Assembly: GCA_030684475.1 (NCBI GenBank)
Contig: JAUXWB010000259.1
Coordinates: forward strand, 1-64,000
Length of the DNA: 64,000 bases
Direction: 5' to 3'
DNA from: Reyranella sp.
GTDB taxonomy: Bacteria; Pseudomonadota; Alphaproteobacteria; Reyranellales; Reyranellaceae
Made by a program: the position numbers and the translations under genes. Positions 58,351 to 62,307 of the stretch are shown here, one piece after another. The notes under the pieces are model-generated. The model did no database searches. It was not told the DNA's origin and was given only the letters and a program-made list of their open reading frames with translations. Position 1 is the first letter of the stretch. Each line of letters starts with the position of its first letter.

Positions 58351-58414
58351 TTTCTCTCCCCCGGACATCGGGGCCATGTTGGCAAATGCCGGGCGGCGAC
58401 GCTACGTTTCCCGC

Positions 58415-58894
58415 ATGTCCATTTGTTACATCGAAAGCCCGGTCGGCCGCCTCGCGCTCGAAGCCGATGACGATTGCGTGACCGGGGTGCGCTGGGCGAG
58501 CCCAGGCGAACGGGCCACCTCTTCGATGACAGGGGCCGGGAAGGCCGATCCGATCCTGAAGGAGGCCACCCGCCAGCTCGACCGCTACTTTGGTCGCAAG
58601 CTGCGTCGTTTCGACCTGCCGCTCGCGGCTCATGGCACCGACCACCAGAAACGGGTCTGGGCGATGATGCGCGACATCCCGTTCGGCGAGACCGCGACCT
58701 ACGGCGGCATGGCCATGGCACTGGGCTCGGGGCCACGCGCCGTCGGCATGGCTTGCGGTCGCAACCCCCTTCCCATCATCGTGCCGTGCCACCGCGTGCT
58801 GGCCAGCGGCGGCAAGGAAGGCGGCTACTCCGGCGGCCGCGGCCTGCCGACCAAGCGCCAGCTTCTGGCGCTCGAAGGTGTGGTCCTTCCGTAG
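58415..58894 (+). CDS. ogt: Methylated-DNA–protein-cysteine methyltransferase
   Basis: A 159-residue single-use DNA repair protein that takes alkyl groups from O6-methylguanine onto a Cys. The active site is IIVPCHRVLASGG and the helix-turn-helix includes AMALGSGPRAVGMACGRNP. The DNA-binding domain is complete and the small N-terminal domain is short, as in Ogt. ATG 58,415 gives the family-like start; an in-frame start at 58,376 is less likely. It is followed by hemD on the same strand. Confidence 0.93.
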   Translation: MSICYIESPVGRLALEADDDCVTGVRWASPGERATSSMTGAGKADPILKEATRQLDRYFGRKLRRFDLPLAAHGTDHQKRVWAMMRDIPFGETATYGGMAMALGSGPRAVGMACGRNPLPIIVPCHRVLASGGKEGGYSGGRGLPTKRQLLALEGVVLP

Positions 58895-58952: not shown

Positions 58953-60941
58953 ATGCGCGTGCTGATCACCCGGCCCGAACGCGAGGCGACGGCGCTGGCC
59001 ACGGCGCTGATCGAGCGTGGCCACACGCCGGTCATCGCGCCGTTGTTCCGGCTGGAAATCCTGCGGCCGCCGCCCGACTTCGCCGCGGCGCTGGCATCTT
59101 GCCAGACCGTGCTGCTGACCAGCGCCAACGGCGCGCGCGCGCTGGCCGAAGCGAACGAGCAGCGTGGCAAGCCGATCCTCGCGGTCGGCGACACCACCGC
59201 CTCGACGGCCGAGGGCCTGGGATTCGCCGCCGTCGTTTCGGCGGCCGGCGACGGCGAAGCGTTGGCCGCGCTGGTACGCCGCGGCCTCGACCCCAAGAAG
59301 GGAGCACTGATCCACATCTCGGGCGTCGATGTCGCGCTCGATCTCGCCCAAACGCTCGCGCCTGACGGTTTCGAGGTGCATCGCTTCGTGCTCTACGACG
59401 CCCGCGAGGAAGGCGCGCTGCCCGAGTCGGCGCGCGCCGCCTTGGCCGCCCGCGCGCTCGATGCCGCGACGTTCTTTTCGTCGCGCGCGGCGACCATTTT
59501 TGCCAAGCTGGCCGGCGAAGCCGGTCTGGCCGATGCCGTGCGAGACGTGACTGCCGTTGCCATCAGCCCCGCAGCCCTCGAGCCGCTCTCGGCATTGCCC
59601 TTCAAGGCGACCGTCGCGGCGGCGCGGCCCACCCGACAGGCCGTGCTGGACGAGATCGACCGGCTGGCCGAAGCCGGCGTACAAGGAGCGCAGACCATGA
59701 GCGACACACCTTCTCCTGCGCCCGAGTCATCGCCGTGGGCATCGACGCCCCCCGCGTCGCCGCCCCCGTCACCTCCCCAGGTCGCGATCCGGCGCGGTCT
59801 CGGCGTGTTCGGCGCCTTCGTCACCGGCGTCTTCGCCGCCGTCCTCGTGCTGGCAGGCGCGGTGATTTCCCTGCCGTTCTGGCCCGAGGAGATCCGCGTG
59901 CTGTGGCGCGGCGAGGCCAGCGCCCCCGCGCCCGCGCCCCCCATCGACCTGCAGGCCGTGCGCGCCGATGCCACGATCGTGGCCAATGCCGCCGTCGACG
60001 CCGCCCGGCGCGATCTCACCGCCCGCCTCGACGAGCTCGACAAGCGCGTGGGAGCCGCCACCGCAGCCGCGGCGGAACGGCCGGCGGCGACGCCTGATCC
60101 GGCCATCGCCGAACTGCGCGGCAAGATCACCGCCCTGGAGAACCGGCCGGCCGCGCCAGCGGCTTCGGGTCCGGCACCGGCTGCGCCACAGGCCGCACCG
60201 GCCGCGAGTGGCGATACCGACAAGGATATCGCCGCCCTGCGTCTGGAGATCGCGACCCTGCGCTCGGCCCTGCAGACGCTCGACCAGGCGATGTCGGGAC
60301 AGAAGGACGAGACGGCCCGCCAGCGCGAGCATGGCAAGGCGCTGGCCGACGCCGTCGACAAGGCACGCGCCGAAGCGAGTGCGATGGGCGCGGGCGAGAA
60401 AAAGGCGCTGGGCGCCGCGCGCGCCTCGGCGGTGATCGGCGTGGCCGCGCGCCTCAGCTCGGCGCTCGAAGCGGGCGCGCCCTACGCCTCGGAACTCGGC
60501 CTGCTGGCGCCATTGGCAGAAGGCGACGCCAAGCTGGGCGAGATCATCACCTCCCTGCAGCCCCATGCAGCGGCCGGCGTCGCCTCACGCGTGGCCCTGT
60601 CCGCAAGTTTCCCCGCCGTCGCCAAGGCAGCACTAGCCGACGATCTCGCCGACGATTCCTTCGGCGAGCGGCTGCTCGGCAAGATCAAGGGGCTGGTGTC
60701 GCTGCGCCGTGTCGGCGCCGACGTCCCGGGCGATGCCGTCGATGCCAAACTGGCGCGTGCCGAAGCCGCCCTCGAAGCCGGTGACGTCGCCAAGGCGGTC
60801 GATCTCATGAAATCGCTGCCACCGCAGACCGCCAAGGCGACGTCGGCCTGGTTGGCGCGCGCCGAGGCCCATCTGGCGGCCAAGCGCGCGGTCGACCAAC
60901 TCGCGTCCTACGCGGTCACCCTGCTCGGCGCGGCGCGGTAG
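58953..60941 (+). CDS. hemD: HemD fused in frame to a MIC60/mitofilin-like protein
   Basis: One 662-codon frame covers two proteins normally encoded separately. Residues 1-240 are uroporphyrinogen-III synthase (MRVLITRPEREATALATALI, VLLTSANGARAL, FFSSRAATIFAKLA), which closes the tetrapyrrole ring. From about 250 comes an alphaproteobacterial mitofilin-like (COG4223) protein: a Pro-rich start, TM helix LGVFGAFVTGVFAAVLVLAG, Ala-rich coiled coils and a C-terminal mitofilin domain. At 59,698 an internal ATG has AAGGAG eight bases upstream, so a separate mitofilin could also be made. No stop lies between the parts. ATG 58,953 follows GGAG. HemY follows directly. Confidence 0.85.
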   Translation: MRVLITRPEREATALATALIERGHTPVIAPLFRLEILRPPPDFAAALASCQTVLLTSANGARALAEANEQRGKPILAVGDTTASTAEGLGFAAVVSAAGDGEALAALVRRGLDPKKGALIHISGVDVALDLAQTLAPDGFEVHRFVLYDAREEGALPESARAALAARALDAATFFSSRAATIFAKLAGEAGLADAVRDVTAVAISPAALEPLSALPFKATVAAARPTRQAVLDEIDRLAEAGVQGAQTMSDTPSPAPESSPWASTPPASPPPSPPQVAIRRGLGVFGAFVTGVFAAVLVLAGAVISLPFWPEEIRVLWRGEASAPAPAPPIDLQAVRADATIVANAAVDAARRDLTARLDELDKRVGAATAAAAERPAATPDPAIAELRGKITALENRPAAPAASGPAPAAPQAAPAASGDTDKDIAALRLEIATLRSALQTLDQAMSGQKDETARQREHGKALADAVDKARAEASAMGAGEKKALGAARASAVIGVAARLSSALEAGAPYASELGLLAPLAEGDAKLGEIITSLQPHAAAGVASRVALSASFPAVAKAALADDLADDSFGERLLGKIKGLVSLRRVGADVPGDAVDAKLARAEAALEAGDVAKAVDLMKSLPPQTAKATSAWLARAEAHLAAKRAVDQLASYAVTLLGAAR

Positions 60942-60948
60942 GCCGCCG

Positions 60949-62307
60949 ATGACCACGCTGCGCATCCTGATCTGGTTCGCGATCGCCGCTGCCGCGATGC
61001 TGGGCGCGGTGTGGCTGGCCGAGCGGCCGGGCACGCTCACCGCCGAGTGGCAGGGCTGGCGGCTCGACACCAATGTCGGCGTGGTGCTGATCGTCGTCGT
61101 GGCGCTGATCCTGTTCGGCGTGGCGGCGTGGCTGCTCTACCGCTGGATCGTCGGCGCCCCGGGCGCCCTACTCGAGGGCTGGGGCGAAAGCCGGCGCCAA
61201 CGCGGCTACCGCGAACTCACCCGGGGATTGGCCGCCGTCGCCGCCGGCGACGGTGCCGAGGCCCAGAAACATGCCCGCAAAGCCGAGCAGCTTCTGGCCG
61301 AACCATCGCTCACCCTGCTGCTGTCGGCTCAGGCCGCCCAGCTCACCGGCGATCGCGACGGCGCCAAGCGGGCATTCGACGCCATGCTCAAGGACGAACA
61401 GATGGCCTTCCTCGGCCTGCGCGGGCTGATCGGCCAGGCGCTGCGCGACGGCGACCAGACCAAGGCGCTGGGCTTCGCCGAGCGCGCCTTCACGCTCCGG
61501 CCGCAGACGCCGTGGGTCGTGCATTCGCTGTTCGACATGCAGGCCCAGGCCGGCCAATGGAAGGCGGCGCAGGCCACGCTGGACCAGGGCATCCGACGCA
61601 AGGTGGTCGCCGCCGACAGGGGCCGCACACTGAAGGCGCTGCTGCTGGTCGAGCGCAGCTGCGACGCCGAACGCGCTGGTCGCGATACCGACGCCCAGGC
61701 GCTGGCGCGCGAGGCCTTCGGCCTGGCGCCGGAGCGCATCGCGGCGACCGGGCGACTGGCCGAGCTGCAGATCAAGGCGGGCGACGGCAAGCGCGCGCTC
61801 AAGACGCTGGAACGCGGCTGGGCGGTGGCACCGCATCCCGATCTGGTCGAGATCTATCTCAGGGCCTCGGGCGAGTCCGATCCCCTGAAGCGCATCGCCA
61901 TCGTGCGCCGCCTGACGGCCCACAACGCCGACGACATCGAAAGCCACCTGGCGCTGGCCCGGGCCTCGCTCGACGCCGGCCTGTGGGGCGAGGCGCGACG
62001 CCACCTCGAGACGGCGGGCGGGACCTCGCCGCCGGTCCGCGTCTGCCGCCTGATGGCCGAGGTCGAGGAGCGCGCCAACGCCGACCCGGCCAAGGTCCAC
62101 GACTGGCTGGCGCGCGCCGCCGTGGCGCCGGCCGATCGCTCGTGGTCCTGCACCGCCTGCGGCGCCCACCACGAGAGCTGGCGCTCGGTCTGCGAGAGCT
62201 GCGGCGCCTTCGGCACGCTGCAGTGGCGCGCGCCCGGCAGCTATGGCCATATCCTGCCGCCCGAGGCGCAGCCTGCGCCTGCGCTTCCTTCTCCGACGGG
62301 GGCCTAG
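60949..62307 (+). CDS. hemY: HemY-like membrane TPR protein with C-terminal zinc ribbon
   Basis: A 452-residue HemY homologue, probably a scaffold of heme biosynthesis or envelope organisation. Two N-terminal TM helices (about 4-24 and 42-64) are followed by TPR-like repeats (80-400). The C-terminus adds SCTACGAHHESWRSVCESCG, a four-Cys zinc ribbon. Its ATG lies seven bases after the hemD–mic60 stop, and its stop directly precedes the MetE-like gene. The hemD–mic60–hemY order matches other alphaproteobacteria. Confidence 0.88.
   Translation: MTTLRILIWFAIAAAAMLGAVWLAERPGTLTAEWQGWRLDTNVGVVLIVVVALILFGVAAWLLYRWIVGAPGALLEGWGESRRQRGYRELTRGLAAVAAGDGAEAQKHARKAEQLLAEPSLTLLLSAQAAQLTGDRDGAKRAFDAMLKDEQMAFLGLRGLIGQALRDGDQTKALGFAERAFTLRPQTPWVVHSLFDMQAQAGQWKAAQATLDQGIRRKVVAADRGRTLKALLLVERSCDAERAGRDTDAQALAREAFGLAPERIAATGRLAELQIKAGDGKRALKTLERGWAVAPHPDLVEIYLRASGESDPLKRIAIVRRLTAHNADDIESHLALARASLDAGLWGEARRHLETAGGTSPPVRVCRLMAEVEERANADPAKVHDWLARAAVAPADRSWSCTACGAHHESWRSVCESCGAFGTLQWRAPGSYGHILPPEAQPAPALPSPTGA

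What the first reader, a model, noticed from the sequence alone, without database searches (positions are those of the whole stretch)
58953..60941. hemD and mitofilin-like gene form one continuous frame
hemD and the MIC60-like gene are adjacent in alphaproteobacteria but normally separate. Here no stop lies between them, while a good internal ribosome site and ATG remain at 59,698. The cell may make a membrane-tethered HemD fusion, a free mitofilin, or both. This ties heme synthesis to membrane architecture.
Basis: partly seen in the sequence, partly recalled or inferred. Interest (0 to 1): 0.6.

Follow-up and report, generated by a model that had tools for sequence, protein, structure and literature searches.

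The report
Heme enzyme fused to cristae-protein homolog
In Reyranella and many other alphaproteobacteria, the heme-making enzyme HemD and the bacterial relative of the mitochondrial crista protein Mic60 are encoded as one continuous protein, and in Reyranella a strongly conserved second start site inside the gene suggests that the cell makes both the fusion and a free Mic60, a lead on what bacterial Mic60 has to do with heme.

Summary
58953-60941 is one 662-aa frame: complete HemD (PF02602), disordered linker, one transmembrane helix, then coiled coil and Mic60/mitofilin domain (PF09731). It is not a sequencing error: the same fusion is found throughout Reyranella (56 distinct ORFs in the genus and near kin, including isolates) and is the only HemD and only mitofilin hit in single-contig Reyranella genomes.

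Its ribosome site AAGGA is invariant in 40/40 sequences that carry the motif, although the codon around it changes amino acid (Gln/Glu/Lys). The Gly codon GGA, normally 7% of Gly codons here, is used in 43/43, the only fully fixed silent site of 169 tested. Selection on the RNA therefore favours internal initiation. Best reading: one gene gives two products, an inner-membrane-anchored HemD-Mic60 and a free Mic60. Some deep lineages lack the ribosome site. Whether anchoring matters for heme flux or membrane shape is untested.

The parts
58953..60941 (+). hemD-mic60 fused reading frame, 662 aa
   Evidence: conserved across the genus
58953..59681 (+). HemD (uroporphyrinogen-III synthase) domain, residues 1-243; own ribosome site GGAGAG just upstream of 58953
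   Evidence: PF02602 E 1.6e-35; model pLDDT mostly 80-89, Foldseek match to HemD 4es6 E 6e-11
59683..59688 (+). internal Shine-Dalgarno sequence AAGGAG; AAGGA invariant in 40/40 relatives with the motif
59697..59699 (+). internal ATG, start of the presumed free Mic60 (MSDTPSP..., 414 aa); Met249 of the fusion
   Evidence: invariant in 52/52 aligned sequences
59682..59804 (+). disordered Pro/Ala/Ser-rich cytoplasmic linker, residues 244-284
   Evidence: pLDDT mostly below 50; variable length, always in frame
59805..59867 (+). transmembrane helix, residues 285-305, preceded by RR (N-terminus in the cytoplasm by the positive-inside rule)
   Evidence: sequence, alignment, helix 285-305 in the model
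60216..60473 (+). long helix / coiled coil, residues 422-507
60429..60914 (+). C-terminal mitofilin domain, residues 493-654
   Evidence: PF09731 over its cut-off; profile of the genus matches MIC60 in PDB 7pv1, E 3.6e-4
60949..62307 (+). hemY-type TPR membrane protein (HemY_N) with a C-terminal zinc ribbon, next gene of the operon
   Evidence: PF07219 E 4.4e-25
58376..58894 (+). ogt, methylated-DNA-protein-cysteine methyltransferase, stands where hemC stands in sister genera

Best explanation
One gene, two products. Ribosomes starting at 58953 read through into mic60 because the hemD stop codon was lost. They make a 662-aa inner-membrane protein with HemD on the cytoplasmic face, a flexible linker, one membrane helix, and the Mic60 coiled coil and mitofilin domain in the periplasm (shown: frame, domains, helix, conservation; inferred: topology). 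Other ribosomes start at the retained mic60 site (AAGGAG, ATG 59697) and make free Mic60 of 414 aa (inferred from selection on the RNA sequence). All HemD is thus made Mic60-anchored unless cleaved, while extra free Mic60 can dilute the anchored form in Mic60 assemblies.
For: Open fusion throughout the genus and family, including isolates. Only one above-cut-off HemD and only one mitofilin hit in each of several single-contig or near-complete Reyranella genomes, so the fusion must supply both functions. Ten linker lengths, all in frame. Met249 is 52/52; Gly245 codon GGA is 43/43 against a mean of 7% over 29 conserved Gly columns; Val243 GTA is 41/45 against 6%. AAGGA is 40/40 while the codon's first base varies C/G/A. 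It is the only one of 169 four-fold columns fixed at the third base, at a mean silent identity of 56%. Most fused loci elsewhere also keep an in-frame ATG soon after HemD.
Against: No protein or ribosome data. The test of duplex energy against synonymous recoding was weak (-5.2 against -4.8, SD 0.25). Several deep lineages (L022, L023, L110, L112) keep the Met but have no clear ribosome site, and some other fused families have no internal ATG at all, so a free Mic60 is not required everywhere.
Confidence: 0.72

Rival explanations
1. Only the fusion is made; the internal ATG and its ribosome site are relics of the ancestral separate mic60 gene.
For: Some fused families have no internal ATG or ribosome site; the MTD-type deep lineages lack AAGGA.
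Against: A relic would have decayed: silent sites are only 56% identical, yet GGA is fixed in 43/43 and AAGGA in 40/40 while the amino acid changes.
Confidence: 0.13
2. The fusion is functionally neutral: stop codons between two adjacent co-expressed genes are lost now and then, and HemD tolerates a C-terminal extension because the linker is disordered. Anchoring has no role.
For: In several unfused loci one in-frame stop and a gap of 0-15 nt separate the genes, so one substitution suffices. Fusion state changes about 16 times on a quick tree, of which 3 are forced by well supported branches. Both states occur within one genus, G339 fused and G243 separate.
Against: The fusion has been kept across the whole genus and family through several in-frame linker length changes. 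The downstream partner in all 43 fused loci is Mic60, but adjacency alone may explain that.
Confidence: 0.4
3. The fusion is an intermediate that a protease cuts in the linker, giving soluble HemD and membrane Mic60.
For: Long, disordered, Pro/Ala/Ser-rich linker.
Against: No conserved cleavage motif was seen in the linker; an internal start would be superfluous.
Confidence: 0.1
4. Missing stop or frameshift by sequencing or assembly error.
For: The window comes from a fragmented, 85% complete assembly.
Against: Same fusion in dozens of independent assemblies, including single-contig genomes G022, G016 and G069 and named isolates.
Confidence: 0.005

Closest known systems
hemC-hemD-mitofilin(IMMP/HemX-like)-hemY operon of alphaproteobacteria (PMC7641849)
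   Same: Same genes, same order hemD-mic60-hemY, same strand.
   Different: Described there as separate genes; here hemD and mic60 share one frame, and hemC lies elsewhere in Reyranella.
Alphaproteobacterial Mic60 (work of Munoz-Gomez and colleagues and of Tarasenko and colleagues, as summarised in PMC12136173)
   Same: N-terminal membrane helix, coiled coil, C-terminal mitofilin domain.
   Different: N-terminus carries a whole HemD enzyme in the long product; no such form was found in the papers searched.
HemD-HemX fusion proteins of some betaproteobacteria (CDD PRK06975, recalled from memory, not tested)
   Same: HemD joined to a single-span membrane coiled-coil protein of the same operon position.
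   Different: HemX (PF04375) instead of mitofilin; no PF04375 match in the window's genome. The few long non-alpha frames I opened were not fusions.
Prokaryotic genes with an in-frame internal start giving a shorter second protein (for example Cas11b, PMC11899642)
   Same: One reading frame, second start site, shorter C-terminal product.
   Different: Here the two products are a fusion enzyme and a separate membrane protein that is its own gene in relatives.

Membership tests
HemD, uroporphyrinogen-III synthase (PF02602) | Full-length HEM4 domain above the curated cut-off | tested here: met
   122.7 bits, profile 2-229 of 231
HemD, uroporphyrinogen-III synthase (PF02602) | HemD two-domain fold | tested here: met
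   Foldseek best matches are all HemD structures, 4es6 E 6.4e-11, TM 0.72 of target
HemD, uroporphyrinogen-III synthase (PF02602) | Converts hydroxymethylbilane to uroporphyrinogen III | not testable with these tools
   Only indirect: sole above-cut-off HemD in near-complete genomes
Mic60 / mitofilin (PF09731) | C-terminal mitofilin domain above the curated cut-off | tested here: met
   32.4 bits against 27.4; 15 of 17 genomes tested over the cut-off; genus profile matches PDB 7pv1 MIC60
Mic60 / mitofilin (PF09731) | N-terminal transmembrane helix followed by coiled coil | tested here: met
   Residues 285-305 and 422-507
Mic60 / mitofilin (PF09731) | Membrane bending or a role in intracytoplasmic membranes | not testable with these tools
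   Reported for other alphaproteobacterial Mic60 (PMC12136173)
HemX (PF04375) | HemX domain above cut-off | tested here: not met
   No match in the window's genome and none in the protein
HemD-HemX fusion (PRK06975) | HemD followed by HemX in one chain | tested here: not met
   The second half is mitofilin, not PF04375; PRK06975 itself was recalled, not compared
Gene with internal translation start | Conserved in-frame start codon with ribosome site under selection | tested here: met
   not met in some deep lineages
Gene with internal translation start | Second protein product detected | not testable with these tools
   Needs N-terminomics or ribosome profiling

The most novel reading that the evidence does not exclude
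Alphaproteobacterial Mic60 is, among other things, a membrane scaffold for heme synthesis: HemD works while docked on Mic60, and lineages have repeatedly made this docking covalent. The conserved internal start sets the ratio of HemD-bearing to free Mic60 in the same assembly. This would point to a heme-linked ancestral role for the protein that later shaped mitochondrial cristae.
Probability: 0.3. Interest if true: 0.72.

Novelty: new variant of a known kind. Interest (0 to 1): 0.52.

Why it matters
Mic60 is the core of the machinery that shapes mitochondrial cristae, and why its bacterial gene sits in a heme operon has no clear answer in the papers I could read. A covalent HemD-Mic60 protein, found in many families and fixed in a cultivable genus, is classic evidence that the two proteins work together. 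It gives a direct test: split or anchor HemD and look at heme and at membranes. The preserved internal start also makes this a clean case of a fused gene that kept its second product.

Tried and rejected
Sequencing error: rejected (many independent genomes). HemC-HemD-Mic60 triple fusion, suggested by open frames over 1000 aa in G044, G042, G161 and others: rejected; the upstream part reads as low-complexity Arg-rich sequence, i.e. hemC in another frame (in G044 and G088 hemC lies just upstream). HemD-HemX fusions outside alphaproteobacteria: the long frames opened (G384, G433, G536, G558, G400, G387, the last an alphaproteobacterium) were not fusions; the hit list was truncated, so absence is not shown. 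Ribosome-site strength by duplex energy against synonymous recoding gave only a weak signal, because the amino acids already allow purine-rich codons; codon-level tests were decisive instead. Excess of same-frame arrangement among unfused pairs: 18 of 34, but part of that sample had been picked for long open frames; among the separate loci picked without that criterion it is about 9 of 23, so no excess is claimed. Literature searches for Mic60 with hemD, heme biosynthesis, hemX or orf52 returned nothing; most subscription papers on Mic60 are not in the library.

Full report
What is there. The frame from ATG 58953 to TAG 60941 is open for 662 codons. Pfam finds HemD (PF02602, residues 14-231, E 1.6e-35 for that part alone) and the mitofilin C-terminal domain (PF09731, residues 493-654, over its curated cut-off) in one chain. 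Between them lie a Pro/Ala/Ser-rich linker (244-284, pLDDT mostly below 50), a transmembrane helix (285-305) preceded by two arginines, and long helices. The HemD half folds as HemD (Foldseek to 4es6, E 6.4e-11), and a profile of the genus matches both HemD chains and the MIC60 chain 7pv1 in the PDB by sequence. The next gene, at 60949, is a HemY-type TPR protein, so the hemD-mic60-hemY order of the alphaproteobacterial heme operon described in PMC7641849 is kept. hemC is not upstream: ogt stands there, and in complete Reyranella genomes hemC is far away, whereas in sister genera (G044, G088) it lies just upstream of the fusion.

It is real and old. The window belongs to Reyranella by its closest named relatives. 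All genus members with a full-length locus carry the fusion in one frame; one of them, the metagenome assembly G021, has a TAG inside the Mic60 part (codon 326). I extracted 94 loci with 56 distinct ORFs over 500 aa from the genus and near kin. Isolates with the fusion include R. aquatilis KCTC 52223, R. massiliensis 521, Enhydrobacter aerosaccus ATCC 27094 and Vineibacter terrae CC-CFT640, as well as R. soli NBRC 108950. In single-contig or near-complete Reyranella genomes the fusion is the only HEM4 match over the cut-off and the only mitofilin match. Heme synthesis by this route must therefore use a HemD made as a fusion.

It is not confined to the genus. A profile search of 289 genomes of the class, followed by reading 80 loci, classified 43 as fused, 34 as separate, and three as having HemD without a Mic60 found nearby. 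Of the fused ones, 37 are genomes outside the window's family, from 24 family-level groups (groups carry codes, not names). Loci with long open frames were picked on purpose, so these numbers give a minimum spread, not a frequency. Named examples outside Reyranellaceae are Kiloniellaceae assemblies (L137, L138). On a quick tree of 80 loci the fused/separate label needs 16 changes, of which well supported branches force 3; the tree is weakly resolved, so the exact number is uncertain. In two members of one genus (G339 fused, G243 separate) the states differ, and in several separate loci a single in-frame stop and a gap of 0-15 nt divide the genes. Loss of one stop codon is thus a likely route.

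The internal start. ATG 59697-59699 (one base earlier than reported) is preceded by AAGGAG at 59683-59688. In the genus alignment Met249 is the only invariant residue between Leu238 and Gly282 and is ATG in 52 of 52 sequences. In 40 sequences with the motif the nucleotides AAGGA never vary, although the first base of the middle codon does, so the residue is Gln, Glu or Lys. The Gly codon is GGA in 43 of 43, against a mean of 7% over 29 conserved Gly columns; the Val codon two before it is GTA in 41 of 45, against 6%. Among 169 four-fold degenerate conserved columns this Gly column is the only one fixed at the third base, and silent sites are on average only 56% identical between pairs. This is selection on the RNA and fits a ribosome site in use. 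Limits: the MTD-type lineages (L022, L023, L110, L112) lack a clear site, and of the fused loci elsewhere most keep an in-frame ATG soon after HemD but some have none. The free Mic60 product is therefore probable in most Reyranella and not universal.

How it most likely works. Shown: the frame, the domains, the conservation, the single-copy state. Inferred from the helix and its flanking charges: HemD in the cytoplasm, Mic60 body in the periplasm, which puts HemD on the side where its substrate is made. Inferred from silent-site conservation: a second product, free Mic60 of 414 aa. Inferred only by analogy with other gene fusions: that HemD and Mic60 work together also where they are separate. 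Neutral stop loss with a tolerant linker remains a serious rival for the meaning of the fusion, not for its existence; it can be true together with the two-product reading, so the confidences given are not meant to add up to one.

Known and new. The operon and Mic60's descent are known (PMC7641849, PMC12136173). I found no paper in the library that combines Mic60 with hemD, or reports the fusion; the central Mic60 papers are not held, so prior mention cannot be excluded. HemD-HemX fusions in betaproteobacteria are recalled from memory as the nearest known kind and were not compared here. I file this as a new variant of a known kind.

Noticed in passing
L171, L185, L189, L192, L194, L170, L159, L137, L138 (HemD-Mic60 linker): Several alphaproteobacterial Mic60 proteins carry, on the cytoplasmic side before the membrane helix, a helix-turn-helix-like segment 'FGGIRPMAxKLGVxxSTVQGWKxR' weakly resembling P22 Cro/YdaS (below cut-off). 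Fused to HemD this gives enzyme + putative DNA-binding motif + membrane anchor.
   Followed up: partly
60949-62307: HemY-type TPR protein ends in a zinc ribbon (CTACGAHHESWRSVCESCGAF) similar to LapB/RanBP ribbons (weak Pfam matches).
   Followed up: no
L004 (G021), codon 326: One Reyranella metagenome assembly has a TAG inside the Mic60 part just after the membrane helix of the otherwise intact fusion; assembly error or a real truncation.
   Followed up: no
58376-58894: In Reyranella ogt stands upstream of hemD; hemC lies far away in complete genomes, while sister genera keep hemC next to the fusion.
   Followed up: partly
G103:C1:1-6392 and 4596528: The hemD-mic60 region appears three times in this single-contig genome, twice as an inverted pair at the contig start; probably an assembly artefact.
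   Followed up: no
G256:C1:4319888-4320442: This fused genome has its only above-cut-off mitofilin match at a second locus, far from the fusion; possible second Mic60-like gene.
   Followed up: no
G339 and G243 (L179, L183): Two genomes of one genus differ in fusion state at the same junction (overlapping ATGA in the separate one), a good natural pair for testing fusion effects.
   Followed up: partly
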